Positions 11,150 to 64,000 of a DNA stretch of 64,000 nt are shown piece after piece. Every line of letters begins with the position of its first letter. Within the stretch, counting starts at the first letter, position 1. Under the pieces are notes generated by a model. The model ran no database searches and had not been told where the DNA came from. It was given only the letters and a program-made list of their open reading frames with translations. The stretch comes from Ulva prolifera (Eukaryota > Chlorophyta > Ulvophyceae > Ulvales > Ulvaceae), in the NCBI GenBank assembly GCA_023078555.1, contig CM041201.1, positions 8,253,172 through 8,317,171 of the forward strand, given 5' to 3'. The position numbers were made by a program, and so were the translations under genes.

Positions 11150-12648
11150 TCAGCTCAACGGATCAGCTCCACTCCATTGAAAATCTAGATCATCTAACTT
11201 CTGAATTCTATCGTGTGGCATGACGCCAGATCTGCGGGCAATTCGCTGTACACTGCACCAATTGGTCAAGTACATTTGATGTTGCGCAGTGAAGGGTTCC
11301 CAGTCTGCAGACTTTCCGTTCTCCCTATGAAAGCGCTTCAGCTCAGAGTACCAGCACATCCACTCAGCAGCTTCGCTGTCCAGCTCAAAGCCTACGTCAT
11401 GCAGCTTTGCAATTTGCTCTCGTGTTAAATTCGCTTTGGAGTAATCTGACCTCTGCTTTTTGCACCAGCGAGCCAGGCCGGACTCATCCCCATCACGGAA
11501 GCCGCAGTGCACATCGTCTTGTTGCTGTTTGTACTCAATCAGCTGCTGGTACCGATTGTCCCAATCCGAGGCAGTGTCGGACGGAAGTCCATGCGAGAGT
11601 GCAGGGATCAAGTCATGTGCGGAAGCGTTCCTGTACACATGCCCCGAGTTGCCATGGCGCTGTGGCACTGTTGAATATAACGCACCACCTCTGTATCCAC
11701 TGCCCCAGGCACTAACGATACGCCCGACAGGGCTCTGTGAATGCATCAGAAATGTATGACCAGACTTCTGGACCTTCTGGAGGCCAACAGCTTGCTGCAT
11801 CACCGCTCGACAGGGCGGCAGAAAAGATGTGCACAGTGGCAACACCCCATTCATCACGGGACTGAAAGCGCACTGTAGCTCTTCGAAGTCTGTCAGAAGC
11901 AGGCTGGGCTGCTGCATCAGGAGGCGGGCAATGTCGAGCTGCCCCGGCATCTTGACACGAAGCTGAAACAGGCGCCTGGTCACTTGCTGGACGTCAGCAG
12001 TCAGCAGGCGAGGCTCTCGCAGTAGCATTTGCGCAACGTCCAAGTGACCAGCTAGCTTGCTGTCACCATCACGGACGCCCAGAATCGATGCAAGCTCCAC
12101 AAGCCGTGTGCTGACTTGCACTATTGCTGTCACTGCTGAAGATTCTGCACCCGGAGTCTGCAGAGCCCAAACTGTCTCCACGCCAGGAAGTGTGGTTGGA
12201 GTATCGGGAGATGGCGAGGTGACTGGCTGTGCTGTGGGTGGTGTCGGAGCATCTGAGTACTGCTCAAGGGATGATTGTGGATCCACTGCTATCCCCACCA
12301 GGCGTTGGCGCTCTAACGGATCGTATATGCCTCTAGCCTACAGCACGAATACTGTACTTGTATACCGGATTAATGGGACGTCGGGAACCAATCAGATTGC
12401 ATCTGGCACTCGTTTAGAGCTTCAGTACTGGCCTCTCATGTCACCAGACATGAGATTCGCACCTGCCAGTAAACGTCAAGAATCGAGAGTATGTGGTCAT
12501 GATCGAGTCCGAACGCTTCCGCATCGACTGGGCGCAGCGCACTCTGCGCAGGAAGCGGACGCCCGCGCGCCCTTCTGCCTGCAGTGGGTGCACGAGCACA
12601 CCCGCAACAGTTCAGACGCCGTACGGGTGACAGCACAGGCGAGACCAT
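11150..12648 (-). CDS. Helicase-associated (HA) domain protein with mTERF-like repeats
   Basis: Two exons: 12463-12648 (ATG at 12648, Arg-rich N-terminus of 62 residues) and 11150-12337, joined in phase 0 over a 125-bp intron (GTGCGA donor, CTGTAG acceptor with the stop inside it), 457 residues. The C-terminus holds two helicase-associated repeats (PF03457-type pattern: W-x3-Y-x2-L-x2-[YF], then W-x3-QR, then LxxxGF). The first spans WDNRYQQLIEYKQQ to KLHDVGFELD, the second WMCWYSELKRFHREN to KLDDLDFQW. Between residues of about 140 and 230 are two LLREPRLL / LLMQQPSLL units spaced about 35 residues, like mTERF helices. No helicase motor is present. The basic, Cys-containing N-terminus could target an organelle. 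HA-domain proteins without a helicase are abundant in heterokont algae and presumed to bind nucleic acid. Confidence 0.8.
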
Positions 12649-42818: not shown

Positions 42819-44174
42819 ATGGCTGTGATGGCGCTGCTGTGCGTGCTGGCGACGGTGCTGGGGGTTGCGCCGGAGGTGGCGCAGGCGGCGCGGACCCTGG
42901 CGCGCCGCCCAGACCTGCACACCGCATCGCTGGAGCACCCAGCGCTGCACGAGCACGCAGGCCTCGCCGGTGCGCTGACACCCGCCACACCAGGGCTGGC
43001 GTTGTCATGTGATATCGAGTTGCCCCGATCAGCTGTGGGGTCGATGGCGAACCCTGCGTGCTGTGCTGCGGCGTGCGCACGTATGATAACGCATGTGTTG
43101 AGACACATGCCGCCTTGTGCCGGGCCGGTGTCGCCGTCAGCCGGGGTCGCCGGGGAGGTTGCCTGTAAACACTCATGCGTCTCATGCATGCAGGTGACGG
43201 AGACGGAGGGAGCCGGGGTGTGCTGATGTTCAGGTGCGGCCGTGCAACATGCCGTGCTGTACATGTGCCGTGACCCCAACACGCTAGCTGACATGCATGT
43301 AGATCCATGGAAGCCTCACTGACGGCATGTGCAGAGCACAGCATGGCCAGCACATTCCCAGCGCGCGATCGCACCTTTCGTTCAGCGTGGGCTCTGCACG
43401 CATGTGTGCGAGTGTGATCGCATGGTGTGGAGTCCTTTGTTCCTTTTTCGCCCTTTTTGCAGGCCGTTGGCATGCATGCACTGGATGCATTGCACCCCGG
43501 GTTCTCGTGATTGGCCACCGGTGAGAGGTGGCGTCCAGCGTTTCGGTGGGCAGCCACTGCCGCTCAGCTTCGGTGCAGCTGCTGCCACTGGCTCCAGTGC
43601 GTCAGGGTTGGGGGCCATCGGGCCGCCTCACATAGGACAGTTCCGAATATTCAGCTTTGTTTTCCGGATGGTAGCCCTGAACATGCCGCAAGGCGACCCC
43701 AAACTGTTGCACAGATGCGGCGCGTGCAGGTTTGCAAGAGGCGGCAACTCCAGGAACGAGGGCGACGAGGGGAATGAGGGCAATGAGGGGAACGAGGGCA
43801 ATGAGGGCCGTGGATTCCGTAGGTTTGGAGGGAGCACCAGAAACTCCGTGGTCGAGGAGACACGGACGGTGGTGGACGGAGATGACGTCACAACCACTAC
43901 CATCACCGATGTCGCCTCCACCAGCGCGCGCCGCCGGGGTGACAACGGGGATGAGGGTAATGAGGGCGACGAGGGCAATGAGGGCAACGAGGGGGATGAG
44001 GGCGACGAAGGGAGTGAGGGGGCGCAGCGCAGGTCTAGCTCACGCATCAACGGCAACGAGGGCGATGAAGGCAATGAGGGGAACGAAGGCAATGAGGGCG
44101 ACGAGGGGGATGAGGGGGACGAGGGCAACGAAGGCGACGAGGGCAGGGTCCGCAGGGGCAACAGGCGTGGCTAA
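42819..44174 (+). CDS. Secreted Gly-Asn-Glu triplet-repeat protein, paralog 1
   Basis: Two-exon model: 42819-42969 (ATG, hydrophobic signal peptide MAVMALLCVLATVLGVAPEV) and 43741-44174, joined G|GC in phase 1, 194 residues. Exon 2 begins GGNSRNEGDEGNEG and is mostly GNE/GDE triplets, interrupted by a folded-looking insert (FRRFGGSTRNSVVEETRTVV to TTTITDVASTSARRRG) and by a basic AQRRSSSRING patch, and it ends RVRRGNRRG. The same phase-1 junction links a signal exon to the repeat exon in the paralogs at 49093 and 53849. The first exon here is less like the others and lacks the MMRSLLS block, so its assignment is weaker. The intron contains a ~104-bp MITE ending 36 bp before the acceptor. Confidence 0.62.
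43603..43705. mobile_element. ~104-bp MITE family, copy inside the triplet-repeat gene intron
   Basis: CAGGGTTGGGGGCCATCGGG at the left and CGACCCCAAACTG at the right form imperfect terminal inverted repeats. The interior (CACATAGGACAGTTCCGAAT, GGATGGTAGCCCTGAACATG) aligns with 40607-40710. Confidence 0.7.
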
Positions 44175-44600
44175 GCCGCGGCGGGTGACCTGCCAGCCAG
44201 CCTGAGACAGGTGCCGCGGTGCCGTGTTCTCTGCTGGCGTGGGCTGACCTGACGTAGCTGTTCTGTATTAGATCTGATTGATGCTGTGCATGCGGCGCAT
44301 GCTGTGGTGACGGCACCGCCGCCACCGGTGCCGCCGGCCTTTTATGTGGCGACTCCGGCGATATGCGTGTTGACCCTCTTCGGGCAGACCTGCGGACCAG
44401 CGCACAGCATGCAGCACGGCTCTCACGCGTCGCGTGAGCGTGCTTCGCCGCCCTGCGTATGCATGAGTGTATCTTGCAGATGGGTGCATCTTCGGATCGC
44501 TGCTTTGGTTCCCTAGTGCCGTTCTCCTGTGCGCTGTGCCATGCAATGGCTGAAGCTCTTGTAAACTGTTCATATACAGCAACGCAGTGCACCCGTACCT

Positions 44601-44622
44601 CCCCCCCCCCCCCCCCCCCCCC
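44601..44622. repeat. Poly-C tract (22 C)
   Basis: Homopolymer run. Confidence 0.9.
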
Positions 44623-46279
44623 GCTGATCTCACTTCAATATGTCTCCATGCACTTGTGGCACATCCCCGCTTACGGTGCGGTGTGGCGACCGCACACACC
44701 TCGATCGATCGTGGTCACTCCACTGCTTGTCTGATGCTGTTTCATGATCGTGTTGATATACGCCCCGAGCGCCGGCAAAACCGTGTGAACTTGGAGTCTG
44801 GGCGCTTACCCTCGTGGCCCCAGTGTCCCCCTCAGTGACGCATGTGCATCATATGCATATGTACATCACATTTGGTGTATCATGGCACACATACAAAAAA
44901 AAGACGCCTCTTGCAGCTGCCTTCGTCGCATGCGATGTATGGGTGCATGGGCCCCATGCCCTGAGCGTGCTCATGCTGCACATGCTGCAGCTACACCTGG
45001 AAACAGACAATCGCAAATGCAGCACCTGCACCATGTGCACACAGCCATTTGCAGGTCACACATCGTTGCGCTGTTGTATTATTTATTATTGTGATGCATT
45101 TGCAGTCACAATAACCGCCTGTCAATCAGTCGTGCAACATGACTCGTGTTGGTGAACAGTGCATGGTGATGTGTGCAGTGCCAAGCTGGCCTGTTGCTGG
45201 CCCGCATCTGATGTGTGGAAATGCATGTGTACAGGTCTTGAGCCTGCAGACATGATGGCAGCGAAGGGTGCGCTGTAATACGCCTGGCCACAGCAAAGGC
45301 TCAGTTTCACACCTGCTCCACCATAGACGTGGAGAACAGACCACGGTTGCAAGAATGACACGCTCAAGCAACCCCGTTCCTGCGTCCCGTTTAGAAGCTC
45401 TACCTTATGCTTTATGTTTCTCTTCCTTCGAGGTCAGATTTGGGATTCACCGTGACCTTGGCAGCTGCATGCGCAGGCGCTGTCAACAGACATGCAGTTT
45501 TCAGACATGCAGTAGAGACTGCCGACGACCCGGGTACCAACCGGCGGTCATGCTCAACAACCTGCAGTTGCTGAGCAACCTTACCTCTGAGATAGTGAGC
45601 AGCAACGGCGGTCAAACCAGCAACGCGAGGCCTCCGGAGCCGAGGCTTCGTGGGACGCGCCGTGCTGAACGTTCTCGCACAACATCTCGTCCGATCGTCA
45701 ATGCCCATTCACTCTTCTGTAACAATTCAACTGATTGTTCGAACGATCGGGCTCGAGCGCACCCACTGCGCATGCTGCCCACATTCTCAAGTTCAACCCC
45801 GCGCTCCCGGAGCTAGCTATAGGCAAGCACCACAGTTATGGAGCATACCTAAACACAGATTTTGCGCTACAAGCGATTGTTTTGCTGTTTGTGTCTATGC
45901 CCGCTCACTCCTCTGAGCCTGATGTTGCGCTACACAACATGTCCGAACTTCGGAAACAAAAGAGACGCAAACGCGACGCCAGTCCCAGGACTCTGGAGAT
46001 ATGGATCCAGATGTATCCAGCAAGATCGCTCGCTAGCAGGTATTTGCCCAAAGCCATGTACTATTCTTCAACATGCGTTGCCCGTGAGCGATCGTGATGA
46101 TGCTATTCTCAGTGATACCGGTCTGGTGCAAAGAGAATCACGTCGGGGTTGCGATTTTCAAAGATGTGTCTGATCATTCGCGGTGTGATCTGGCCGCTGC
46201 AGAGGCCAGGTGCTCAGCAGCGTGGCTGAGCAGACCAGGGCGGTCACGGACGCCTCGTCCACGGTGCACCGTGAGACTG

Positions 46280-46650
46280 CACGCCGTCGACGGAACACAT
46301 GCCTGCCTCTTGGCTCTCTACCGCACATGTGCAAGATCGACAAGCGCGCTCGTCCAATATTGATTAATCGCGATGCCGACTACGGCGTGTGTGTGCGGGC
46401 TGTAGCATTGTGATGATCGCGTGAACGATGGTTCAGGAGAGTGCTACGCAGTGATTTTCTGCACTCTTCTACTTTACTCTTTTGTTACAACAAGCGCGCA
46501 GGGGAAAATGCAATCGCGCAAAGATAGCCGTGGTCAACGCGCCTGTTCGAGTTTTCGGCAGCTTGTGTTCGTGGTGTGAGAGCCTCACCGATAGGCCGCC
46601 CGCGCGCGGGTAGGCAGTGCTACTAGGCACGCGGTCTACCTGCTCGAGTT
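46280..46650. repeat. Diverged third copy of the duplicated segment upstream of the triplet-repeat genes
   Basis: ACACATGCCTGCCTCTTGGC and GGCAGCTTGTGTTCGTGGTG, then GAGAGCCTCACCGATAGGCC, match 52378-52540 at roughly 80%, with unrelated sequence between 46334 and 46511. The minus-strand peptide AGGLSVRLSHHEHKLP is preserved (AGGLSVRLAHCEHRLP in the other copies). Confidence 0.6.
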
Positions 46651-46740
46651 CTGGACCTATGCATGAAGATTCGTTCAGATCAGTACACGAGACGGACGTG
46701 CCACGCATGTGCTGTCAAGCCCCCCTCCACCGCTCGTGTA

Positions 46741-46772
46741 CATATGTAGTTACAAAGGACAGAGGCCGGGCT
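46741..46772 (-). mobile_element. Minimal non-LTR retrotransposon 3' end fragment
   Basis: TATGTAGTTACAAAGGACAG followed by AGGCCGGGCTCG is the same end as the copies at 20323 and 29224, here only about 32 bp long. Confidence 0.55.
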
Positions 46773-48347
46773 CGTGTACATATGTAAGGTTATATGTATG
46801 TTCAGGCGGGGGCCAAGGGGTGGACCACATGATGAACCTGCAGGGTTTGCATATCCCAGTGCGAGCGCGGAATCCGTGCTGCACACGCAATCAGGCGCGC
46901 AGCCGCGTCTATTCATGACGCAACGTGCTCAGCGCGTCAACGTCGCTGTGAGCCGGCCTCAAGTGCACTGACCGCTGAGTCGCGGCGTTCACTATAGACA
47001 TGATACCGCAGTGTGAGCATGTGTATCTGGTCAAACTACATGTCTCTGGTCGTGCATGGCCCCAAGCTTCGAGCGGCGCTCGAGCGCACTCTGCGGAGGG
47101 TGTCGACTCGACACACTGTCGAGGCTACGAACGCGACGCGTACAATCCAGTGCGATCGATACACGCACTGGCCACGCATGCATATTTGTGCATCATCTCG
47201 AATTCGGATGTCGAGGCGTGGTGCACGCCTCATGATGGAAGGGTCACGGCCCGGGTCTGCATGCAGATATAATTAGTTTAAACGCTTCGGTCGCGATTTT
47301 GGCGAGCCATATATGGATTCTGCATTTTCATGTAGGTCTATACCTCTACTGCTATCGTCGCTAGTATACATATTCGATCTGCAACACAGGCCGGACTACA
47401 GACTTATTAGTTCGACAACTTGAGGTCCGACTCTGGCCTCTGGTTTTCTGCCAAACTCGTTGTGTTCACATCCAGGTTTGGCATGACTCAGCAGAGTGAG
47501 GCCGAGCGAGCCCGCCATGCCAGCCCCCAATTCCAGCAGCTTGCTGGCTTGCCTGGCACTTGTAGGAGTAGCACATGTAAATTATGTGGCAGGTGGGATC
47601 CATGTGTGGTGCTGTCCACCTCCAAATATGCCCCAAAACTGACTTTTTCAATTCTCAGTGCAAGGATGTTTGCGGCAGGCCACTGTGATACCCCAGAGTG
47701 CATTACCACTGATGTTGTGTTGTGAAAATTCGCAGCCTCAAGGCCAAACAACCAACATGCAGCTCGACCAGAATCCGCCCGATCAGCACTTCACATATAC
47801 CTCAAGTGATCTCCTGTTCGAATCTGAGCCTCAATCCTTGCACACCAGCTCCAACAGCTATTCTGCGTGTGCTATCGAGCCCGACTATGCGTGTGCTTCA
47901 CCATTTTCTGTGCTGAAAGTTGCTGTGCACTCAGTCTCACAAATCGAATGCATTCACCGGCAGCTTTTTTGCGTGCTTCGCGAATCTGCATTCCAGTTGT
48001 CAACACTGATCTCGTGGAGTGCATGGCGTGGCGGTGTGGTGAGTGGTGTCCCGTGACGCACGCCCCATGCGAGATTCCAACACCCCGAGTTCGGGTGAAA
48101 ACCGGTGTGGCTAGCTCTGCCGGACCGGTCAATGCTTTGCGGGTGACAGCGCGACCCTGTGGCACCAGCGTGGCATCAAAATGCATCAATATTGTGTTGG
48201 TTTGGTCTTCAAGTACACCCGTTTACTCTTTTGTCTGTCTGAACCCGTTGATGTGGCCGTGTGGGCGATGTGTCCGCTCTTCATCCGGATGAATCATGAT
48301 GCACGGTCGGGATCCCGTTATAAACGGCTAACTTTGGGCAAATCCTG

Positions 48348-48502
48348 GGTGTCGGCGCGGCCGACACCGGTTTGCCCTGCAGGGCAAAATAGCTGTGAGC
48401 GCCAGCGGCATACCGGGAGCATTACGACAAAATATTCGGTGAGCCGCGCAGCGGCTCACGGGGATTAATCCCGATGACGGGCCTCCCGATGACGTCATCG
48501 GG
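48348..48502. repeat. Cluster of five perfect GC-rich palindromes
   Basis: GGTGTCGGC-gcg-GCCGACACC (48348-48368), TTTGCCCTGCAGGGCAAA (48371-48388), GTGAGCCGC-gca-GCGGCTCAC (48439-48459), GGGATTAATCCC (48461-48472) and CCCGATGACGTCATCGGG (48485-48502). None is a tandem copy of another. The sequence context looks unlike the flanks; function unknown. Confidence 0.85.
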
Positions 48503-49092
48503 CAGGCTGCACGTTAGTGTTACCACTCAGGCTAAGCTGCTGTTTGAGAACATACCGTCATGTGACATGATGCACTGCATATGACACGTGACTCATGAGT
48601 ATTGTGCTGGGTTTTCTGTTCATGGTCGACCCACAAGTACTAGTGCCAGAGACAGCAGCAGACGCTGATGATCTGGGCATGTCTGTTGAGGAGCCTCCTC
48701 AACTGACCTTGAGAAGCTGCTAGCAGAGGGTCTGCAGGATATCTAATATTGCTTATTCATGCTGCTGTGATCATGCTTGGTAATTCTTTATAACGCCCTT
48801 GCACTACTTGCGGGTTTTTTTTTGTGGGTTTTTTTTTTGTGAGCCCCCGATTCAATAATTACTATACTTAGGTTACCAGTCAGCACACAACTGTGTTTAC
48901 AAAAGAGTGAACACAACTGTCAGTGGGATTCCGCCCCCCCTTCCGCTGAAGCAGAGCCAGCAGGCACGGTCAGTTACACATCACCCTCATGTCTGTTTGA
49001 AACGCATATATCCAGTCAAAGCGCAGCCGGTGATTCCTGACCTGCCTCACCAGCACGCCCGACCCCTGAAATCCACTGTCCGCCAGCAGGCC

Positions 49093-50969
49093 ATGACCCT
49101 CAAGCTCAACTTTCGATCCCTCCTCTGTGTGGGGGCGGCCGCATGCGTGGTCGGGTCGGCCGCTGCGCGCCCGGCCCCCCTCGCCACTCGCCTGCCTGTG
49201 GCCGCGGCCTCCGCCGTCGCCGGCGACGTCCAGGAGCCGGAGGGGGGCCTGCAGGCGGCAGCGGCACTGTGGAGTCTCCCGGGCTCCAACAGCGTGGCCA
49301 TGATGCGCTCCCTGCTCTCCAGCAACAACGGTGCTTCCCTCTCCACTCCTGCAGTCAAGATTGACAGCATATGACCGGTGTCAAAAGCACTGCGCTGCTC
49401 CACCCGTGGCCACGTACGTGTGGGGCACGTCGATTGTCTTTTCAAAGTTACCAGGAGAGGTGGCACACAGGAGCTGGTGGAGCTGCTGAGGGGCAGCACG
49501 TGCTTCACTGCCGTGGACTTGTGAGCTGCTATCAGGCTGAGCATGCACTGGCTGAGCAGCTGCCATGTGGAGTGTCTGTGACCTGATGCATGCATGTCCG
49601 GCTCCAGATGTGCGTGTGGCCATGTGGGCTGGGTTCAGGGCTGTAGCTTGAGCATGCACATGCACGCAGCATGCATGACCATGCAGACCTGTTCTGCTGC
49701 GGAGTGGCGGTCTGGTGCGCAGGGGACGAAGGCGATGAGGGCAATGAGGGGAACGAGGGCAGCGCTGAGGGTAATGAGGGCAAGAAGACCATGAAGAGAC
49801 GCGCGGGCAGCCAGGATGGCATCGAGGTGAATGAGGGGTTTGAAGGCAATGAGGGCAACGAGGGAAATGAGGGCAACGAGGGTAATGAGGGCAACGAGGG
49901 GAATGAGGGCAACGAGGGGAATGAGGGCAAGAAGGGCAAGAAGGGCAAGAGGGGCGGGAGCAGCAATGATGGTAATGAGGGCAATGAGGGCAATGAGGGA
50001 AATGAGGGCAACGAGGGGAATGAGGGCAAGAAGGGCAAGAAAGGTAAAAAGAGAACGAGCAGCAACGATGGTAACGAGGGCAATGAGGGCAACGAGGGAA
50101 ACGAGGGCAACGAGGGGAATGAGGGCAAGAAGGGCAAGAAAGGTAAAAAGAGAACGAGCAGCAACGATGGTAACGAGGGCAATGAGGGCAACGAGGGAAA
50201 CGAGGGCAACGAGGGGAATGAGGGCAAGAAGGGCAAGAAAGGTAAAAAGAGAACGAGCAGCAACGATGGTAACGAGGGCAATGAGGGCAACGAGGGAAAT
50301 GAGGGCAACGAGGGGAATGAGGGCAAGAAGGGCAAGAAAGGTAAAAAGAGAACGAGCAGCAACGATGGTAACGAGGGCAATGAGGGCAACGAGGGAAACG
50401 AGGGCAACGAAGGCAACGAAGGCAACGAAGGCAATGAGGGCTCCTCCGGATCTGCATGCGGAGGTCCCTTTGGGTGTGTGCCTACGTATGCATGTTGCCT
50501 GGATGCATATGTGGGCCGTGCCGAGCCCCCTCTATGCCCCCCATGCCCCCTATGCCGTAACTTTCCTGCTGCCGACACATACCACCTACCACATACCACA
50601 CACCGGCACCAGCACCGGCACCAGCACCAACACACGCACACCAATGCAGATCGACAGACGGCCGGAGCTAGCACTCGCACGACTACAAATCACCCATGCA
50701 TGCAAATTGGTATGATTCACGCTGAGGACGCTGAGGATGCTGGACGGTGGTGTGCAGGTGCCTCGGCTTCAGTCCGGGGGCATTCTATCTCAGTCTCTTC
50801 TGATCACCTGGAGCCGCTCGCCTCGGCCAGCGGTCGGGGCGGAGCGAGGTGCTGCGCCGAGTGGCTAGTGATGTCTGCAATGCTACCTGCTGGTCCAGCT
50901 GTTGCCCTGGAGCAACACACATGTTTTGGATGCTGCTGCCTTGGCTGCCCGCTGGGCTATTCACGCTGA
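49093..50969 (+). CDS. Secreted Gly-Asn-Glu triplet-repeat protein, paralog 2
   Basis: Exon 1 is 49093-49330: signal peptide (NFRSLLCVGAAACVVGSAAA), a short propeptide-like region (PLATRLPVAAASAVAGDVQE) and the family block NSVAMMRSLLS. The donor ACG|GTGCTT joins in phase 1 to exon 2 at 49723 after TGCGCAG, giving SSNNGDEGDEGNEG. Exon 2 holds over 70 Gly-led triplets, mainly GNE, with basic GKK blocks and RTSSND spacers in a 33-residue (99-bp) unit. After the repeats the frame runs on through GSSGSACGGPFGCVPTYACC to a stop at 50969. That tail may instead be removed by an intron starting GTGTGT near 50474, so the 494-residue length is an upper estimate. Glycine at every third residue is a collagen-like register without proline. 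Secretion is predicted; function unknown. Confidence 0.75.
49959..50453 (+). repeat. 99-bp tandem repeat inside the triplet-repeat exon
   Basis: The AGCAGCAAYGATGG block recurs at 49959, 50058, 50157, 50256 and 50355, exactly 99 bp apart. Units 2-4 are almost identical, so they were recently amplified or homogenised. Each encodes GNE triplets followed by GKKGKKGKKRTSSND. Confidence 0.9.
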
Positions 50970-53848
50970 CTGGGAGTGGACTGGATCCTTTGCAACATCG
51001 ACCCGCTGGCAGAAGTTGATGCCTATAGCTTGCCTCCTGCGAGAGCAGCTGCTTGTGGCCTGCTTGTGGCCGTGGTCATCACTCTGCTGAGCTGGGAGCA
51101 TCACGGCTGTCGATGTAGAGACAACGTGAATTGATGCTTGTAAGTCTGCTAGAGGAGGATTTTTCTGTGGCTTTGCTGCAGCAGGCTATGAGTGGTAGGT
51201 CTGGTGTGAAGAACTGACACATCTGTTGCCTTTGTTCTTGTTATGAATCTGTTGCCTGGCATACATTGAGCTACATATGCACCGATAGCTATGTATCTAC
51301 TGAAGTGGCCACCGTGGCGTACTTGAAGTTGCTACCGCTTGCTCAAACTGCACAGATTGTTGGTCAAAGTGCCATGCGCCGGTCCTTCAAGAATCTGGTA
51401 AATCATTTGATTTGAGTGGATTTTACAGATGAATTTCCGCTTGTTCCGTACACTTGCTTGCGTGGCTTGCCCTCAGGCTGTCGAGGAGAACACATGTACA
51501 AAGCGACTGACATGTCATGCAGCCTGGCCGGTCCAGGCCTTTCTACTTGGGAAATACCTCTTTTAGACGTGAATCTTCTAAAGTCAGATTTCAGTAGGAT
51601 GTATGGCTGTGCAAGGCGCTGTCAACAGGTGCTGGTCAAAACGCTGTCAATGGGTGGTAGAGCTGTAGAGCGAGGTCTGAAACAGCTCTCATGCTCAAAA
51701 GCAGCAATGCGTAATGTTTTAAGTCCAGACACCGTGAGCCGTGCCGTACTGGTACTTCAATGTTTCGTGCGCACCAGCTGCCAAGACAGACTCAGGCCAC
51801 GAAGCGCAGAATTGCACTGTCTAAACAAAAGCAGCACCACCTCCACTTCCAGCCGTCATGCTCATAACTCCGACGTTCACCAGGGCATCGGCAGACGCGA
51901 TGCTACATCGTGCCAGTCGTGGGTGTTTGTGGATTGAGCATGAGGTACGTGTAGCAACCCCGGGCCTTGATTATCCAATCACGCGGCATGATCATTGCGA
52001 ATACTCATGTCGAGACACACAAAATTTTGTGTGTGATCATTGGCGGTTTGATGCCAGCTGCCCAGCTGCGCATGCCTGGTGCCTGCAGTGCACTCAGTAC
52101 TAGTGCACGACGGCGTGCGCTGGCCGCTCGAGCTCCTGACGTTACCACCAGCCCGACGCTGAAGCTGCGGATGTCAGTGACCGACTGCTATTTCGTTAGG
52201 ACTCTTGTGCTGTGACTGTCCAAACCCGGTCACACCTCTGTGACATATGTATAGACCGAGCGCTGCAGCTGACGTCAACGAGGTCCATCGAGGTGGCCTT
52301 ACGAACGCAGCTGCGCTGCAGTTTCGTGTGCGCGCCGATGGGAGTGAAATTACGCGCTATTGTCGCGCATGCACGATCAACGGAATACATGCCTGCCTCC
52401 TGAGTCTCGCCAGCGCATGTGCATGACCAAGGCCACCACGTGGTGCACAATCAACGTTGACGCGCCGTCTGCGACTTCCCGGCAGCCTGTGTTCGCAGTG
52501 TGCGAGCCTCACTGAGAGGCCGCCCGCGACCAGCACTTTGATCTTGCCCGTGTGATCGGCTGATCCGAGCTCTAGCGTTGAGATGTAGCGCTCTACCTCC
52601 TGCCAAGATGGCTGCCACGTGCCCGGTCGTTGACGGCCGCGGCCACGCAGAATTCGAATGTGCCCGGGGGGATCGGAGAGACCAGAAAACTCACAGAGGT
52701 GTACGCGCCTGCGTGTCATGCACATGTATATGCTTGTGCTGGACTCTCGTGCGATTGACGTGAGCCTCGCGATCGTGACTCAAGCTAGCCATCAGGATGC
52801 ACTCTGTCGGCCTGCGGATGTATACATACGTATCGATGGCAGCCGGTCACGTCATGATGCACAAAATCGACGCACAATTCGAATTCATACCACTCACATG
52901 TGTACATATCCGCCAACGGCAGAACATCGCAGGTGCCTACTAGGTAGTACACGTACACAGCTTAAAGGAATCTCAGGTTGAGGTTCAGCTTCCACACAGC
53001 CCCGTCGTCGCGACGTCAAGGGCCTCCAGTGCCCCCCTGGCGCATATGCTTGCGTGCTCTGCAATAACGCGGGTTTATTGTTCACTCGCGCAGCTCATGT
53101 CTGGTCGCCGGCAGAAGGTACGTATACATACAGCGTGCAAACCTATATTCACATGTCTTCGACAAGCAGGTCCACAATTTCATTCATCAGAATCTTGCTA
53201 TTCCTTGCCATACGTGTGTGTGCAGAGCTCCAGAACACGCGCGTATCCCAAGATATCAAGACAGTGTGATCGAGAGAGAGACAGCAATTGCAAGGCTATC
53301 GAACTACGTGGTGCGTGCCCTGATACGAGAGACCACATGAACTCATGAGTAAACTCATCATCATGTGGGACCACAGGATGTGGGTCACATTGCCGCTGTC
53401 AATCGAACTTGCAAGGCACCGGCCGCGGGCATGCTTGATCTGGACAATTCGGGGACAGACATGCAATTTGCAGGGCCTGTGCATTTGCGCGCGTGTACTT
53501 TTATAATAGGGATTCATCTGTTATGGCATACGTAAATACGCGCGGCGCACATTTGTACACAAACATGGCACAACAATGCTCGTCCGATCGAAACCCAAAT
53601 CCACTGCTGTAACTACGTTAACGCATTGCATTGCAGTTGTCACAGGTTGAATTGCATGTTGCAGCCAGAAGAGTGCCCTACCTGTACTCTGTCCACGATT
53701 TTACTGATCGGTGTTGACACACAGTGATGTTGAGATTTTATACATGCATGAGCTCATGACGTCGGTGACTGGCCGGGGCGATTTACCAGTGCAATCACGA
53801 TCCGGCATCCCGCACCCTCACCACTGCCAGTGCACGTGCTTGCAGAAC
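50970..53848. other. Intergenic, mostly duplicated segment
   Basis: 50970-51600 has no supported gene; from 51604 it is copy A of the segmental duplication. The only frame with some support is the minus-strand one at 52357-52725. Confidence 0.45.
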
Positions 53849-54071
53849 ATGATCTTCAACATCAGCATCCCGTCCCTCCTCTGCGCCGGGGCGCTTGCGT
53901 TCACGGCCGCCCCGGGCGGCGCCGGCGCGCGCCCGATCAGCCTCTCGACGCGCGTGGCCGCGGCCTCCGCCGGCGACCTCCAGCAGCCGGAGGAGGGCCT
54001 GCGCGCAGCAGACATGCTGGGGACCGGCCTGGGCCTCAGCGCGGCAGGGATGATGCGCTCCCTGCTCTCCG
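51604..54071 (+). repeat. Segmental duplication, copy A
   Basis: Aligns with 61322-64000. The first ~350 bp are clearly more diverged and carry small indels (for example 37 bp at about 51783 missing in copy B). From about 51990 on, the copies are nearly identical through exon 1 of the triplet-repeat gene. Copy B carries two extra insertions with target duplications that copy A lacks. Confidence 0.92.
52357..52725 (-). other. Possible coding exon conserved in three duplicated copies
   Basis: A 122-residue minus-strand frame with SWQEVERYISTLELGSADHT and AGGLSVRLAHCEHRLPGSRR. The peptide AGGLSVRL-H-EH-LP is also readable at about 46560-46610 although the DNA there has diverged by about a fifth, which suggests past selection on protein. 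In copy B the frame is cut at the LINE insertion. No ATG context or domain; it could be a transposon remnant. Confidence 0.3.
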
Positions 54072-55004
54072 GTTCGTTCCCCCTTTGTTCGACGGCAGGC
54101 GCTGACCCACGTACATGCCTCCTGCCCTCCGAGCCATGTGTTGCAGCCCTGCAGGCCTGTATGTTTGCAGCCCTGCACAGGGTATACCCGCATGCTCGAG
54201 AGGATCTTGTGGTCACCCCTGGAAGCTGTGAAGAACGAGAAACCTGTCTGAAGAATGCCTACATAAAAGTCCAATGCCGTGCGTAGCAATGATGCCCACT
54301 TTTTAGTGTTGCTGCTCCTTGGGGGTCGTTGTGAAGAGCCAGGTTTGCCCATGGGCTACCTGTAGCAGCCTTTGGTCGCTTGGGTGGTCGGACGTGGAAT
54401 CTTCAAGTTGCCAACCATACCAGAGGACAGCAGACAATGAAGCCCAGGCTCGATGCTTCCGTGATCAATGCTGATGCATCTGTTCGCGTTGGGGCTGCGT
54501 TGAGCCATGTATGTGATGCGAGGCTATGTGGTGTGAGCTGCTCACTGACGGCACGTGGTGCGGGGCACAGGCAACGAGGGCAACGAGGGCAACGAGGGCA
54601 ACGAGGGCAACGAGGGGAATGAGGGGAATGAAGGGAACGAGGGCAACGAGGGTAAGAAGAAGAGCAGCAAGGGCAAGAAGCGCAACAGCAGCAATGACGG
54701 AAACGAGGGGAATGAGGGCAATGAGGGCAACGAGGGTAACGAGGGAAATGAGGGCAACGAGGGCAATGAGGGCAACGAGGGAAATGAGGGCAACGAGGGG
54801 AATGAGGGCAAGAAGAAGAGCAGCAAGGGCAAGGGTAAGGGCAAGGGCCAGAGGCGCAGCAGCAGCAACAACAACGGCAATGAGGGCAATGAGGGTGATG
54901 AGGGTGATGAGGGTGGCGGCCGCACGACCCGCCGTGTCAACTGCGACTACTTGTGCGATTCTGCTCACAGAACACCGGCAGCAGTGCTGGAGCCATCGCT
55001 CTGA
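53849..55004 (+). CDS. Secreted Gly-Asn-Glu triplet-repeat protein, paralog 3
   Basis: Exon 1 is 53849-54071: signal peptide (IPSLLCAGALAFTAAPGGAG), a linker with SAGDLQQPEEGLRAADMLG and the family block AAGMMRSLLS. The donor CCG|GTTCGT joins in phase 1 to exon 2 at 54571-55004 after GGGCACAG, giving RSLLSGNEGNEG; 218 residues. Exon 2 has runs of GNE triplets split by KKKSSKGKKRNSSND and KKKSSKGKGKGKGQRRSSSN, then GDE triplets and a non-repeat end (TTRRVNCDYLCDSAHRTP). Compared with paralog 2 the basic blocks differ in sequence but occupy the same positions. Exon 1 and its upstream 2.2 kb are duplicated at 61322-64000. Predicted secreted, highly charged, extended or collagen-like; function unknown. 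Confidence 0.78.
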
Positions 55005-57671: not shown

Positions 57672-57757
57672 GTGTGGCTTGCTGCGTGGTGTGCGGTTCC
57701 CCTGGTTCTTGCTTGCGGTGCTACCTGCCTCGCTTGCTTTGTCCTTGTAATTAGTTA
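57672..57757 (+). repeat. CCTGCCTC-family repeat, longest copy, ending at a CA microsatellite
   Basis: Plus strand: GGTTCCCCTGGTTCTTGCTT, GCGGTGCTACCTGCCTCGCT, TGCTTTGTCCTTGTAATTAG. About 55 bp are nearly identical to 18487-18545 (reverse). The G/T-rich 57180-57670 may be more of the same element. Confidence 0.7.
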
Positions 57758-57788
57758 TAACACACACGCACACGCACACACACGCACG

Positions 57789-58263
<475 letters not shown>

Positions 58264-58410
58264 CCCAATCAGGCACATCACAATTACCACAAGGCCATCG
58301 CCCTCAGCAGCCCGAGAGATGTGGTAGTTTACAAACACAGTCACCTTCAGCCCAGAGAATGCATGCCTGCACAGCCGTTGCGAGCATACATGGATCGCAT
58401 TCGCAACAGT

Positions 58411-58484
58411 GGTGCCGTTCATTCGGAGTTGTCAATGTCCAATAGGATACGGCTCAGTAAATTCAGATTTGCTTTACTTTGCAG
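58411..58484 (+). repeat. GGATACGGCTCAG-family repeat, copy 4
   Basis: GCCGTTCATTCGGAGTTGTC through AAATTCAGATTTGCTTTAC; it lacks the GGTTTACCCC start. Confidence 0.8.
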
Positions 58485-58900
58485 TAACCTGCCCACGCAT
58501 GGCAGATTACCTAGGCTCCAGAAAATCAAGGTATACAAGGGGGCAGCAGCGAAGCCAGCGTCCCATGGCTCCAGGGTCCCATGGGCCAGCATGCTGCATT
58601 GGTCCCACCCGCGCGTGACAACACCCGCGCTAGCTGCCACATGCACGGTGCACGCGAATGCTGAAGGCAAGCAGGCGAGTCCTGGGCACCTGCACCCGAA
58701 GCAGCACACGGGCAGCACTCTCGGGAGAGCCGCTCAGCCCAAGTTGGGCTGAAGTTATCAACACGCGTACGGGACAGCCCCCCGCCGGCGGGGATCACAT
58801 CTCGAGCCGTCCCTGCTCCGCACCCCCCCGGGCCAGAGCCAGCTGCCAATGCCAATGCCATGCCGTGCCGGCGATGCAGAGCAAACACAGGTCACCACGG

Positions 58901-58997
58901 TGGTTCACCCCTTCGGCATATGTGATCCCGTTAATTCGGAGTTGTCAATGTCCAATAGGATACGGCTCAGTACCCTCAGGTTTACTGTACTTTACCC
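58901..58997 (+). repeat. GGATACGGCTCAG-family repeat, copy 5
   Basis: Complete copy from GGTTCACCCCTTCGGCATAT to TTTACTGTACTTTACCC, only about 420 bp from copy 4. Confidence 0.8.
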
Positions 58998-59044
58998 ATC
59001 GCGCTCGGCATGACCACGCCGCTGCACTTGCAAGTGCAGCGCCC

Positions 59045-59154
59045 CCAAGCATGTCTAGTCAACTCCCAAGCATGTCTAGTCAACTCCCAAGCATGTTTGC
59101 GTAGAAACCTGGTCGCTTACGCAACTCCCAAGCCTGTCTAGGCAACTCCCAAGC
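59045..59154. repeat. Short tandem repeat (~21-bp unit, degenerate)
   Basis: The unit CAACTCCCAAGCATGTCTAG is present in about five copies, the last ones degenerate (CCTGTCTAGG). Confidence 0.8.
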
Positions 59155-61321
59155 AGCGGGTGCTCGCACTCCCTCATGAAATGAACTTTTTCAGTTGCTA
59201 TGACAGGGCCTCTGCTGTGCACGTGACGTGGACCAACGTAGCAGTCGTGCATGACATTGAGGTTGATGGTGTTGGTGCGCGTGGTGGTCCTGCCGCGGGG
59301 GGGGGGGCCCCGGGTGTCGGATGTCACTGTTCGGCGTCCGTTCTTCCGGAGTGGGCTCGTCCTGTTGCTTCCTGTTGCACCAGACAGCGATTGCGGTGAT
59401 ATATCCACAGGTAGCTTGTATACCTGATTACATATATATGCACAGGTAGCTTAGATGCCTGATCCGGCCCCGAATGTGGACTCTGGAGTGTTCGACTGCT
59501 ATAGGAGTCGCTACAGCAGTGGCTGCCAGTGTGTGATCATGCGCGCAGGCTGTGTGCAGCCAGAGGCTGTATGGGTATGTGTGCAGCCTGAGGCGCTGTC
59601 TGTGGACGCCAGATGTAGGGGTGCTGAATTACAGTTAAGCATGGATTAAACCAGAGATTACAGAAAACTATAGTATATGTGCTGTTGTAATTAAGTGTTA
59701 ATTTGAAAATGTGTGATTAACTCAAAGCCGATTATTATTAATTTTGTCTTGCGATTACAGTGTACATCATAATTAAATGGAGAACCGAATGCATCCATGC
59801 CGACCAGCTGTACATGCGATGTAGAGGGCATGCCTGTCGCTGGTGCTGCTGGCAATGACGCTGTTGTAAAGTCATGTGTGCCATGCTTCTGTATCACTCC
59901 ATTCGGTAGCAATCGGGCCCTTGCTCCGTGCATGCAGTGCTGGTGGATCCGGACTTGTTTCCATACGCTGATGCAGTTCACTCTGATGTGTAGTTGGACA
60001 GACTGTATTTGTCTGTGTTTGTGTCATTTAAGTCTACTTTACTTCACTGTTCAGCTGTCACCATGAGTAGGTGCAGCCGTATTATCTCTGTGTACAGCCA
60101 GCATGCATTGTGTTGTGCACCCAATCTAATAGTGGAGCTGTTATCATGCTAGCATGGCCGGCATGATCCAAAAGAACGGCCTTTTCTTGGATAACTTCCA
60201 AGCAGGACACATTGCTTTGTGAGGGTTCCCCAGCTTTTGTTGCAGTCCTGTGATATGACCGCTTTACCACTGGACTGCAAAATTGTACCCATTATGCTGT
60301 TCTGCAGTGCCCAGCATCTGTGTCATTGACGAGAACAGTGCCCGGCGGTGAAGAGGTCTTCACTAGAGCTTATACTACACTGCTGGCAGTGTTGCATCTA
60401 TAGCAGGCATTGTCACACAGCTTGATACACTCCTGGCGAGCACAGCTGCACCACTCCGCTTGCTGCACAGCACCCCCGCTGGCACGTTGACACAGGCATT
60501 GTGCTATATGTAGCAATGGCCAGTGTCTGTGTCGATTGAACTCGCGAATGCTGCGAAGCTGACAGGCCTTAAAGGTAGTTACAGGAAATAATTAACTGCT
60601 TCATTAAGTGTTAATTAGACACCGAAAAAGCTCATTAATTGAATGTAAACGATGTTAATTAATTTCGATAATTTTGTTTACAGATAATTCACAGTGTAAT
60701 TATATTTTGTAATCAAGTTTTAATCTGAGATCTGGAGAATGTAATCAGCAGCCCTAGCCAGATGCTACAAAGCTGGAATGGCTGCCAGCAACTGGCCGCC
60801 TGTGCAGTGCCTACAGCGCTGCACATGTCACCAATTGGAACAAGCGAATTGCGAGGTGATCGAGAACTGCCTGTAGTCACTGCAAGCCAAAGCCATTGAG
60901 CCCAGAGTGCTTGTATAGGTCAATGTCATTGTGCATGTGCTCACCTGCCAACCAATCATGCTTACACGTAGACAGCTGTCTAGTGGTAGTGACTAGTGGT
61001 AGACAGATTTTCACTGTCAACTTACTGGATCCTTGACCTATGTATAAAACGCCATGTATACATATCTTGAGCCTGCAGACGTGATGGGTGTGCGGAAGTG
61101 TGCTGGTATGGCATATCTCATACGGCATGACCACAGCAAATTTTCTTCCAAGTCGAGTCTGCTGCCTGCTTCCAGGCTGAGTGGTCCAATCAAGCCTCTG
61201 CACATACACTGATGACGGGGTTGAGGCTGTCCCTGTGACACAGGCCTTTCTGAATTCGTCTTCTTGCCGAAGGCGGTCCTCGTTGGGACATATCTCATGG
61301 AGATATGGCTGTACATGGCTG
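59155..61321. other. No gene supported; two AT-rich patches
   Basis: Short overlapping frames only. AT-rich islands at 59640-59790 and 60580-60730 resemble each other (TAAGTGTTAATT near the start, TAATTTTGT and ATTACAG/TTTACAG blocks near the end), which is unusual in this GC-rich sequence. A box-A-like repeat lies at 60241-60280. Confidence 0.45.
60241..60280 (-). repeat. Box-A-like repeat in a foldback
   Basis: Minus strand: TGCAGTCCAGTGGTAAAGCG then GTCATATCACAGGACTGCA. The ends TGCAGTCC and GGACTGCA are inverted repeats enclosing the CAGTGGTAAAGCGGTCAT core shared with 4439-4470. Confidence 0.55.
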
Positions 61322-61639
61322 TACATGTGCAAGGCGCTGTCAATAGGTGCTGGTCAAACGCTGTCAATGGGTGGTAGAGCTGTAGAGCGAGGTGTGAAAC
61401 AGCTCTCATGCTCAAAAGCAGAAATGCGTAACTTCTTAAGCCTAGACACCGTGGGCCGTGCCTTACTGGTCCTTCCACGTTTCGTGCGAAAATTGCACTG
61501 TCTAAACAAAGGCAGCACCACCTTCACGTCCAGCCGTCATCCTACATAACTCCGACAATTCACCAGGGCATCGGCAGACGCGATGCTACATCGAGCCAGT
61601 CGTGGGTTTTTGTGGATTGAGCATGAGTTACGTGTAGCA

Positions 61640-61695
61640 ATCCCGGGGCTTGTTTTCTCCCGTTCACTCTTTTGTAAATATCATCCCGGGGCTTG
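61640..61695 (-). mobile_element. 30-bp ultra-truncated retrotransposon insertion with 13-bp target duplication
   Basis: The insert 61653-61682 (TTTTCTCCCGTTCACTCTTT, TGTAAATATC) is flanked by the direct repeat ATCCCGGGGCTTG at 61640-61652 and 61683-61695. Copy A has one such site and no insert. The insert equals the 3' end of the element at 62183, in the opposite orientation. Confidence 0.8.
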
Positions 61696-62170
61696 ATTAT
61701 CAGCAATCACGCGGCATGATCATTGCGAATACTCATGTCGAGACACACAAAATTTTGTGTGTGATCATTTGCGGTTCGATGCCAGCTGCCCAGCTGCGCA
61801 TGCCCGGTGCCTGCAGTGCACTCAGTACTAGTGCACGACGGCGTGCGCTGGCCGCTCGAGCTCCTGACGTTACCACCAGCCCGACGCTGAAGCTGCGGAT
61901 GTCAGTGACCGACTGCTATTTCGTTAGGACTCTTGTGCTGTGACTGTCCAAACCCGGTCACACCTCTGTGACATATGTACAGACCGAGCGCTGACGTCGA
62001 GGTCCATCGATGGATATATCGAGGTGGCCTCACGAACGCAGCTGCGCTGCAGTTTCGTGTGCGCTCCGATGGGAGTGAAATTACGCGCTGTTGTCGCGCA
62101 TGCACGATCAACGGAATACATGCCTGCCTCCTGAGTCTCGCCAGCGCATGTGCATGACCAAGGCCACCAC

Positions 62171-62382
62171 GTGGTGCACAATTTACAAAAGAGCGAACGG
62201 GAGAAAACAAACACTGAAACCGAATCTCACCCGAATCAACTGCAACATACACTCACACACACACACGAACGCCACAACCGCACTCACAACTCAGTCCGGC
62301 AGGATCGCGTCCTCCAGGCCCGCATCATATCGCAACCCTTGCTCCCGAGAGATGACAAGCCCAGACTTCCGTGGTGCACAAT
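62171..62382 (-). mobile_element. 188-bp 5'-truncated LINE insertion with ~12-bp target duplication
   Basis: The insert 62183-62370 is flanked by GTGGTGCACAAT at 62171-62182 and 62371-62382; copy A has a single GTGGTGCACAAT. Read on the minus strand, the insert starts inside a frame (KSGLVISREQGLRYDAGLED, then AILPD and stop at 62291) and continues as a 3'UTR with a GT-rich stretch ending TTCGCTCTTTTGTAAA. Truncation at the 5' side and the target duplication are the marks of target-primed reverse transcription. Related tails lie at about 48222 and 48897. Confidence 0.85.
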
Positions 62383-63777
62383 CAACGTTGACGCGCCGTC
62401 TGCGACTTCCCGGCAGCCTGTGTTCGCAGTGTGCGAGCCTCACTGAGAGGCCGCCCGCGACCAGCACTTTGATCTTGCCCGTGTGATCGGCTGATCCGAG
62501 CTCTAGCGTTGAGATGTAGCGCTCTACCTCCTGCCAAGATGGCTGCCACGTGCCCGGTCGTTGACGGCCGCGGCCACGCAGAATTCGAATGTGCCCGGGG
62601 GGATCGGAGAGACCAGACAACTCACAGAGGTGTACGCGCCTGCGTGTCATGCACATGTATATGCTTGTGCTGGACTCTCGTGCGATTGACGTGAGCCTCG
62701 CGATCGTGACTCAAGCTAGCCATCAGGATGCACTCTGTCGGCCTGCGGATGTATCGATGGCAGCCGGTCACGTCATGATGCACAAAATCGACGCACAATT
62801 CGAATTCATACCATGGTGCACTCACATGTGTACATATCCGCCAACGGCAGAACATCGCAGGTGCATACTAGGTAGTACACGTACACAGCTCAAAGGAATC
62901 TCAGGTTGAGGTTCAGCTTCCACACAGCCCCGTCGTCGCGACGTCAAGGGCCTCCAGTGCCCCCCTGGTGCATATGCTTGCGTGCTCTGCAATAACGCGG
63001 GTTTATTGTTCACTCGCGCATCTCATGTCTGGTCGCCGGCAGAAGGTACGTATACATACAGCGTGCAGACCTATATTCACATGTCTTCGACAAGCAGGTC
63101 CACAATTTCATTCATCAGAATCTTGCTATTCCTTGCCATACGTGTGTGTGCAGAGCTCCAGAACACGCGCGTATCCCGAGATATCAAGACACGTGTGATC
63201 GAGAGAGAGACAGCAATTGCAAGGCTATCGAACTACGTGGTGCGTGCCCTCATACGAGAGACCACATGAACTCATGAGTAAACTCATCATCATGTGGGAC
63301 CACAGGATGTGGGTCACATTGCCGCTGTCAATCGAACTTGCAAGGCACCGGCCGCGGGCATGCTTGATCTGGACAATTCGGGGACAGACATGCAATTTGC
63401 AGGGCCTGTACATTTGCGCGCGTGTACTTTTATAATAGGGATTCATCTGTTATGGCATACGTAAATACGCGCGGCGCACATTTGTACACAAACATGGCAC
63501 AACAATGCTCGTCCGATCGAAACCCAAATCCACTGCTGTAACTACGTTAACGCATTGCATTGCAGTTGTCACAGGTTGAATTGCATGTTGCAGCCAGAAG
63601 AGTGCCCTACCTGTACTCTGTCCACGATTTTACTGATCGGTGTTGACACACAATGATGTTGAGATTTTATACATGCATGAGCTCATGACGTCGGTGACTG
63701 GCCGGGGCGATTTACCAGTGCAATCACGATCCGGCATCCCGCACCCTCACCACTGCCAGTGCACGTGCTTGCAGAAC

Positions 63778-64000
63778 ATGATCTTCAACATCAGCATCCC
63801 GTCCCTCCTCTGCGCCGGGGCGCTTGCGTTCGCGGCCGCCCCGGGCGGCGCCGGCGCGCGCCCGATCAGCCTCTCGACGCGCGTGGCCGCGGCCTCCGCC
63901 GGCGACCTCCAGCAGCCGGAGGAGGGCCTGCGCGCAGCAGACATGCTGGGGACTGGCCTGGGCCTCAGCGCGGCAGGGATGATGCGCTCCCTGCTCTCCG
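63778..64000 (+). CDS. Secreted Gly-Asn-Glu triplet-repeat protein, paralog 4, exon 1 only
   Basis: Nearly identical to exon 1 of paralog 3: signal peptide (IPSLLCAGALAFAAAPGGAG, one Thr-to-Ala change), QQPEEGLRAADMLG and MMRSLLS. The window ends on the very base where the exon donor falls in paralog 3 (the first base of the split Gly codon). The repeat exon would lie beyond the window. Confidence 0.75.
   Translation, partial: MIFNISIPSLLCAGALAFAAAPGGAGARPISLSTRVAAASAGDLQQPEEGLRAADMLGTGLGLSAAGMMRSLLS

What the first reader, a model, noticed from the sequence alone, without database searches (positions are those of the whole stretch)
42819..64000. Clustered family of secreted proteins made of Gly-Asn-Glu triplets in a collagen-like register
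Four genes within 21 kb share a signal-peptide exon, a phase-1 intron and (in the three seen complete) a second exon in which glycine falls at every third residue for long runs (GNE, GDE, GKK). Three of them share the MMRSLLS block just before the junction. Acidic GNE runs alternate with basic GKK/KKKSSKGK blocks. I know no named family with proline-free GNE triplets plus a signal peptide. Cell-wall, mucilage, mineral-binding or self-assembling extracellular roles are all possible (inference). The family is actively expanding by duplication.
Basis: partly seen in the sequence, partly recalled or inferred. Interest (0 to 1): 0.85.

Follow-up and report, generated by a model that had tools for sequence, protein, structure and literature searches.

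The report
Seaweed's acidic collagen-like protein family
A green seaweed carries a large family of genes for probably secreted, collagen-like proteins built mostly of glycine-asparagine-glutamate triplets; 'collagens' had been counted in sea lettuce genomes before, but this proline-free, charge-patterned design makes them a testable unusual kind of matrix protein.

Summary
The window lies in an 88.9-Mb genome, most likely Ulva prolifera (plastocyanin 98/98 identical to PDB 7pcy; matching assembly size). Three of the four genes (g2, g3, g4; g4 completed just beyond the window) have a signal-peptide-like exon with MMRSLLS, a phase-1 intron at the stalk boundary and a Gly-Asn/Asp-Glu stalk; three loci outside the window show the same design. 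For g1 only the stalk is secure. Genome-wide I merged 103 matching loci; 55 carry a conserved Cys-rich C-terminal domain. Variation is mostly synonymous: Gly is replaced in 1, Glu in 2 of 624 flanked triplets. Pfam scores g1-g4 as Collagen (PF01391; g3 barely), and the literature counts 'collagen genes' in Ulva (28 in U. mutabilis), so the kind is known; I found no description of the proline-free GNE chemistry, acid/base blocks, R-x-L-L module or C-terminal domain in the searched library. Best reading: secreted collagen-like matrix polyelectrolytes, the window subfamily self-associating or binding ulvan through alternating acidic and basic blocks. Triple helix, secretion and expression are unproven.

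The parts
42819..43226 (+). g1 candidate first exon: ORF starting MAVMALLCVLATVLGVAPEVAQA (signal-peptide-like by eye); splice to the stalk not established
   Evidence: ATG at 42819, stop ends 43226; many GT sites, no convincing phase-matched pair
43742..44174 (+). g1 stalk: G[ND]E-type blocks of 5, 8 and 10 triplets separated by Arg/Ser-rich linkers, stop after ...RVRRGNRRG
   Evidence: as L050; Pfam Collagen 33.4 bits on the open frame 43323-44171
49093..49330 (+). g2 exon 1: signal-peptide-like N-terminus, MMRSLLSSNN(G)
   Evidence: exons with the same donor position at L041, L205, L042
49331..49722 (+). g2 phase-1 intron (392 nt, GTGCTT...GCGCAG)
49723..50444 (+). g2 exon 2, stalk: G[ND]E blocks (4, 1, 10, 6, 6, 6, 6, 8 triplets) alternating with basic blocks such as GKKGKKGKKRTSSND; 99-bp (33-aa) tandem unit; [quoted passage not shown]
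   Evidence: Pfam Collagen 41.8 bits on a 204-aa part of the protein
53849..54071 (+). g3 exon 1: signal-peptide-like N-terminus, AGMMRSLLS(G)
54072..54570 (+). g3 phase-1 intron (499 nt)
54571..55004 (+). g3 exon 2: (GNE)9 - GKKKSSKGKKRNSSND - (GNE)12 - basic block - GNEGNEGDEGDE - Cys-containing tail, stop
63778..64000 (+). g4 exon 1 (ends with the window; phase-1 donor follows); exon 2 complete outside the window at C6:8317677-8318125
51608..54958 (+). block carrying g3 that is duplicated as 61326-64917 (g4): 95.9% over 2.5 kb and 85.9% over 0.9 kb
   Evidence: divergence by segment

Best explanation
These are genes of an Ulva family of (probably) secreted collagen-like matrix proteins. A signal peptide and a short N-module ending in R-x-L-L deliver the chain to the secretory path; the G-(N/D)-E stalk is kept for two things at once, the every-third-Gly register of an extended PPII/collagen-type chain and a carboxylate at every Y position. 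In about half of the family a Cys-rich, predicted helical C-terminal domain ends the chain (possibly an oligomerisation or anchoring domain). In the window subfamily that domain is missing and basic blocks (GKKGKKGKK, KKKSSKGK) alternate with the acidic ones, so that chains can pair out of register acid-to-base, and/or grip the sulfated polysaccharide ulvan with Lys and Ca/Mg with Glu, making a hydrated gel in the cell wall. Shown: gene structure by recurring splice-site positions, codon-level constraint, genome-wide family, shared modules, Pfam Collagen score. Inferred: secretion, triple helix or PPII state, self-assembly, ulvan or cation binding, location in the matrix.
For: Six loci with the same phase-1 intron position at the module/stalk boundary (g2, g3, g4, L041, L205, L042); R-x-L-L in 11 of 11 modules aligned, including genes without that intron (L043 and L004, left out, lack a clear one); g3/g4 stalk 25 synonymous against 2 non-synonymous differences; three C3 paralogue pairs with stalk dN/dS 0.03-0.05; Gly changed in 1, X in 29, Glu in 2 (both to Asp) of 624 flanked triplets of 27 loci, and no spacers of 1, 2, 4 or 5 residues between triplets; 55 of 103 stalk loci followed by the C-terminal domain, with 8 Cys invariant in 15 of 15 aligned copies and 2 more in the 14 that reach them; PF01391 matches at 125 places, every listed row over the cut-off, 11 of them only with their neighbours; the g2 33-aa unit carries 7 basic and 7 acidic residues, 4 exact copies; in print, proline-free (GAS)n forms a triple helix and acid/base-block KOD peptides form fibrils and hydrogels (PMC7682875, PMC7824840, passages).
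Against: No transcript, proteome or SignalP test. Charged residues without partners destabilise triple helices (PMC7824840 passage), and pure GNE runs are all-acidic. The basic blocks of g3/g4 (KKKSSKGK) leave the Gly register. 13 of the 20 loci measured besides g2-g4 have six or fewer Lys/Arg in the stalk (e.g. L058 net -30, L056 -91, L059 -147), so block pairing cannot explain the whole family; the whole g2 stalk is net -19 and g3/g4 net -12 although the g2 unit is neutral. PF01391 also rewards simple Gly-rich repeats (L207, L208, L210), and 5 of its rows have in-frame stops. One antisense frame of the g3/g4 stalk also looks constrained (20 synonymous, 7 non-synonymous). One GNE exon with a matching acceptor (L206) showed no such first exon in the 1.3 kb held upstream. 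AlphaFold2 gives no confident fold for the stalk.
Confidence: 0.55

Rival explanations
1. The stalk is not a triple helix: it is a single-chain, PPII-rich or disordered polyelectrolyte bristle in the wall, valued for water and divalent-cation binding; Gly keeps it extended and Glu carries the charge.
For: Glu at Y is kept as strictly as Gly (2 against 1 change in 624 triplets), more than a triple helix alone demands; no Pro in the g2-g4 stalks; AlphaFold2 shows no structure for g3 exon 2 alone; unpaired charges disfavour triple helices.
Against: A mere charged bristle does not need Gly at exactly every third residue, yet no out-of-register spacers of the tested lengths were found. AlphaFold2 on one chain cannot show a trimer.
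Confidence: 0.33
2. The 9-nt repeats are slippage-driven low-complexity sequence with little function, kept open by composition.
For: GNE arrays turn over fast: the first two g3/g4 arrays differ at 20 of 189 aligned sites while the two linkers differ at 3 of 117; GNE repeats also occur in scattered prokaryote genomes; the arrays are open in several frames.
Against: Those array changes are all synonymous in the GNE frame; four of five other frames of the g3/g4 stalk show the reverse, the fifth does not; splice-site positions, N-module and C-domain recur around the stalk.
Confidence: 0.05
3. The stalk folds as a PPII-helix bundle like the Gly-rich snow-flea antifreeze protein (recalled), i.e. 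a compact Gly-x-x protein.
For: Glycine at every third residue, no proline in g2-g4 stalks.
Against: Uniform acidic GNE blocks would repel in a bundle (inference); single-chain AlphaFold2 gave pTM 0.13 and no secondary structure (one sequence only).
Confidence: 0.04

Closest known systems
Ulva 'collagen genes' (28 in U. mutabilis, 4 in U. compressa; PMC9266709 section 2.8, passages seen)
   Same: Same genus, same naming, same proposed role in the wall/extracellular matrix; probably the same family (inference).
   Different: Only counts were seen in print; no sequence, GNE chemistry, gene structure, charge blocks or C-terminal domain in the passages seen. The primary paper (De Clerck 2018) was not held and supplements were not open to me.
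Pfam Collagen PF01391 / animal collagens
   Same: Gly at every third residue over long runs; g1-g4 score above the curated cut-off.
   Different: No proline in the g2-g4 stalks, no COLFI or other animal non-collagenous domain in the Pfam scans made, acidic Y residue at nearly every triplet of the acidic blocks.
Bacterial collagen-like proteins, e.g. Bucl8 with (GAS)n (PMC7682875, passages seen)
   Same: Proline-free single-triplet repeat of variable number on an extracellular region; (GAS)n shown by CD to form a triple helix.
   Different: Neutral repeat on a bacterial outer-membrane protein; no homology claimed.
KOD designed collagen peptide (PMC7824840, passages seen)
   Same: Separate Lys-rich and acidic triplet blocks that pair across chains into fibrils and a hydrogel.
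   Different: Designed peptide of (PKG)4, (POG)4 and (DOG)4 units, rich in Pro/Hyp.

Membership tests
Collagen triple helix repeat (PF01391) | Gly-X-Y repeat over many triplets | tested here: met
   Runs of 13 (g3) and 14 (g2) Gly-led triplets, shuffles at most 9; register kept
Collagen triple helix repeat (PF01391) | Score above Pfam's gathering cut-off (27.2 bits) | tested here: met
   g2 41.8 (204-aa part), g3 27.6, g4 29.7, g1 frame 33.4. The related L061 scored 16.5, under the cut-off
Collagen triple helix repeat (PF01391) | Forms a homo- or heterotrimeric triple helix | not testable with these tools
   Needs CD and trimer mass; the AlphaFold2 job was a single chain
Animal collagens | Pro/Hyp-rich X/Y positions | tested here: not met
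   No Pro in the g2, g3, g4 stalks as read from the translations; X is N 614, D 294, other 43 of 951 units selected as GxE runs in 31 loci
Animal fibrillar collagens | C-terminal COLFI trimerisation domain | tested here: not met
   Pfam scans of window proteins and of L058, L004, L065 show no such domain; the C-terminal domains of L004 and L058 have no Pfam hit
Ulva matrix 'collagens' of the literature | Secreted to the cell wall | tested here: inconclusive
   Hydrophobic N-termini with small-residue cleavage-like sites in exon 1, read by eye; no SignalP, no proteomics
Ulva matrix 'collagens' of the literature | Sequence identity to the genes counted in U. mutabilis / U. compressa | not tested
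   No other Ulva genome was searched

The most novel reading that the evidence does not exclude
A green seaweed independently evolved a collagen without proline: a family of about a hundred loci whose Gly-Asn/Asp-Glu stalks form triple helices (or trimeric PPII rods) stabilised by seawater Ca/Mg and by acid-to-base block pairing, with its own Cys-rich C-terminal registration domain, as a structural protein system of a multicellular algal matrix.
Probability: 0.3. Interest if true: 0.85.

Novelty: new variant of a known kind. Interest (0 to 1): 0.6.

Why it matters
Collagen-type matrix proteins are usually thought of as an animal hallmark with scattered bacterial and viral copies (general knowledge). 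A large, constrained, proline-free family in a multicellular green alga would be a convergent matrix protein, would test how far a triple helix can go without Pro/Hyp on charge alone, and offers natural acid/base block repeats for gel-forming biomaterials. It also suggests that the 'collagen gene' counts in Ulva papers stand for a specific and, in this genome, larger family.

Tried and rejected

Caveats of my own counts: the g3/g4 stalk dN/dS of 0.012 rests on aligning repeat units that may not be positionally homologous. One search counts only triplets flanked on both sides by G[ND]E, in 27 of the 31 loci (four near-identical copies dropped; with them: 3, 35 and 2 of 726). In one search the G and E sites were fixed by the search expression, so only the middle residue and the third codon positions are informative there. 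In the module alignment I used 11 of the 14 stretches: L002 (near copy of g3), L071 (near copy of L069) and L043 (no R-x-L-L) were left out. The 103 loci are merged from the rows listed plus two places, and hold near-identical copies; one search did not list all its matches and scored 150 of 234 candidates.
Full report
WHAT WAS CHECKED. The window is G000:C6:8253172-8317171, plus strand, of an 88,887,114-base, 44-contig genome. A plastocyanin gene found there by Pfam Copper-bind, its two exons read and joined by hand, is identical over 98 of 98 residues to PDB 7pcy (212 bits) and less like 1iuz (186 bits); that 7pcy is Enteromorpha (Ulva) prolifera is recalled. A review table lists three U. 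prolifera assemblies, one of them (isolate Qingdaoensis, ASM2307855v1) at 88.9 Mb (PMC12526767, passages seen). The organism is therefore taken as Ulva prolifera.

THE WINDOW GENES. g2: exon 1 49093-49330, intron 49331-49722, exon 2 from 49723. g3: 53849-54071, 54072-54570, 54571-55004, 218 aa. g4: exon 1 63778-64000 at the very end of the window; its exon 2 lies beyond it and gives a 223-aa protein. All three intron positions are GT-AG, phase 1, and split the first Gly codon of the stalk; this is from sequence, without transcripts. g1 has a signal-peptide-like ORF at 42819 and a stalk at about 43742-44174, but no convincing splice pair and no MMRSLLS block. A run of Gly at every third residue of 13 (g3) and 14 (g2) triplets compares with at most 9 in 5000 shuffles of the same residues.

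THE DESIGN RECURS ELSEWHERE. A search with g2 exon 1 found, besides g2-g4, exon-1 relatives at C3:7222736 and C3:5657644 (E 3e-6 and 1e-4) and a sixth at E 0.13 that was not followed. The first two sit upstream of GNE exons with CAG acceptors. Of the six acceptor places (which include g3 and g4), a matching first exon was seen for five: g3, g4, L041, L205 and, found by eye, L042; at the sixth (L206) I saw none in the 1.3 kb held upstream. In g2, g3, g4, L041, L205 and L042 the first exon ends at ...R-x-L-L...G with GT at the Gly codon. Genes without this intron (L061, L058, L060, L065, L069 and, more loosely, L016) run straight from an R-x-L-L module into the stalk; R, L, L are invariant in the 11 modules aligned. 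L043, left out, and L004, not aligned, lack a clear R-x-L-L. I read this as one N-module shared by much of the family, with gain or loss of an intron at its border.

SIZE AND ARCHITECTURES. The degenerate triple GNE pattern has 553 places in the genome against 0 for the reversed control. A six-frame protein search gave 159 matches with 150 of 234 candidates scored, a lower bound; from the listed rows plus two places, I merged 103 loci. This count includes near-identical copies, such as C1:3.7-17 kb and C1:1.256-1.270 Mb at a constant offset. 55 of 103 have, just downstream on the same strand, a conserved domain of about 210 aa; 8 Cys are invariant in 15 of 15 aligned copies and 2 more in the 14 that reach them. 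33 of 68 copies of that domain of at least about 157 aa in one piece lie in one array at C3:1.34-1.68 Mb. Other members have a Cys-rich N-terminal segment (L048, L056; L039, L051). The window genes belong to a subfamily without the C-terminal domain and, in g2-g4, with Lys/Arg blocks (also L036, L039, L043, L049, L051, L061).

CODING CONSTRAINT. g3 against g4 stalk: 25 synonymous and 2 non-synonymous differences; four of five other frames show almost only non-synonymous changes, one antisense frame does not (20 to 7). L069/L071/L074: stalk dN/dS 0.03-0.05, C-domain 0.05-0.06. L004 with L006 and L016: stalk 0.015 and 0.033, C-domain 0.11. More distant pairs give 0.10-0.14 for the stalk and 0.22-0.34 for the C-domain; one stalk pair is saturated, one pair (L065/L067) has no stalk differences, and the short N-parts reach 1.3-1.7 in two pairs. 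In 27 loci (the 31 less four near-identical copies), 624 triplets are flanked on both sides by G[ND]E: position 1 deviates in 1, position 2 in 29, position 3 in 2 (both Asp), 2 deviate at several positions, and no spacer of 1, 2, 4 or 5 residues occurs. In 951 units selected as GxE runs, Gly uses all four codons (500 GGC, 197 GGG, 167 GGT, 87 GGA) and the middle residue is N 614, D 294, other 43.

RECENT DUPLICATION. 51608-54958 and 61326-64917 are copies: 5' flank 1.6% mismatches with 422 gap columns, exon 1 0.9%, intron 2.2%, 3' flank unrelated. Within exon 2 the first two GNE arrays differ at 20 of 189 aligned sites, all synonymous, the two linkers at 3 of 117 (one linker also by indels), the last G[ND]E array at 0 of 36, and the tails at 24 of 80. 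So the copy ends near the end of the stalk, and arrays turn over quickly while still spelling GNE. Recombination in the repeats that swaps tails is my inference.

HOW IT MAY WORK. The strict Gly register argues for an extended collagen-type or PPII chain; the equally strict Y-position carboxylate argues for a charge task as well. In g2 the 33-aa unit carries 7 basic and 7 acidic residues (four exact copies; whole stalk net -19), a natural analogue of acid/base-block peptides that pair into fibrils and gels (PMC7824840, passages). Proline-free triple helices exist: (GAS)n of Bucl8 by CD (PMC7682875, passages). Against this, charged residues without partners destabilise triple helices, and 13 of the 20 other loci measured have six or fewer Lys/Arg in the stalk. 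Ulvan, a sulfated polysaccharide, makes up to 30% of the alga's biomass (PMC10762512, passages) and is an obvious partner for Lys blocks; this is inference. The C-domain model is all-helical with mean pLDDT 66 and no convincing structural relative. The stalk of g3 alone has no predicted structure.

WHAT IS KNOWN. PF01391 matches 125 places of this genome (150 of 317 candidates scored); every listed row is marked over the cut-off, 11 of them only with their neighbours, and 5 have in-frame stops; some are plain Gly-rich repeats. PMC9266709 (passages) reports four collagens in U. compressa and cites 28 in U. mutabilis; PMC10762512 repeats that collagens were detected in the two species (passages). 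Searches of the held library: 'GNEGNEGNE' 0 papers; 'collagen-like, green alga, signal peptide, triple helix' 1; 'collagen-like, algae, chlorophyta, genome, repeat proteins' 1; 'Ulva, genome assembly, collagen' 11; 'Ulva mutabilis, genome, collagen' 3; 'Ulva, collagen-like' 13, seen as titles and abstract starts only, none of which concerns Ulva's own collagens. Within that library I found no description of the GNE family; De Clerck 2018 was not held, so a description there cannot be excluded.

VERDICT. Real, constrained, larger than the finding says, collagen-like by register and Pfam, and an unusual proline-free variant. Secretion, expression and triple helix remain to be shown.

Noticed in passing
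window 57760-58262: About 500 bp of (AC)n microsatellite.
   Followed up: no
window 62182-62370: About 190-bp stretch in the g4 5' flank that is missing from the g3 flank (gap between the two aligned pieces), starting TTTACAAAAGAGCG; similar 12-mers at 48896 and (reverse) 61667 hint at a small mobile element.
   Followed up: partly
window 58409-58483, 58914-59002 and 66277-66367 (past the window end): A 70-90 bp repeat, 88-91% alike, three copies near the cluster.
   Followed up: no
G000 C1:3.7-17 kb and C1:1.256-1.270 Mb: The same family genes at a constant offset of 1,252,238 bases: assembly duplication or very recent segmental copy.
   Followed up: partly
G000 C8:2442812-2463402: Five collagen-scoring frames spaced about 5.1 kb apart; one was read (L209) and is GDE/GNE-like with an irregular stalk.
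   Followed up: partly
window 11153-12337 (-): Open frame with two Helicase-associated (HA, PF03457) stretches, 92.6 bits.
   Followed up: no
window 22251-23870 (+): Two open frames with weak to moderate TPR matches in Pfam.
   Followed up: no
L107, L146, L161, L162 (records titled Alphaproteobacteria / Rhodobacteraceae / Sedimentitalea): Bacterial stretches with several G[ND]E triplet patches; parts of L107 and L146 were read, L161 and L162 seen only as multiple pattern hits.
   Followed up: partly
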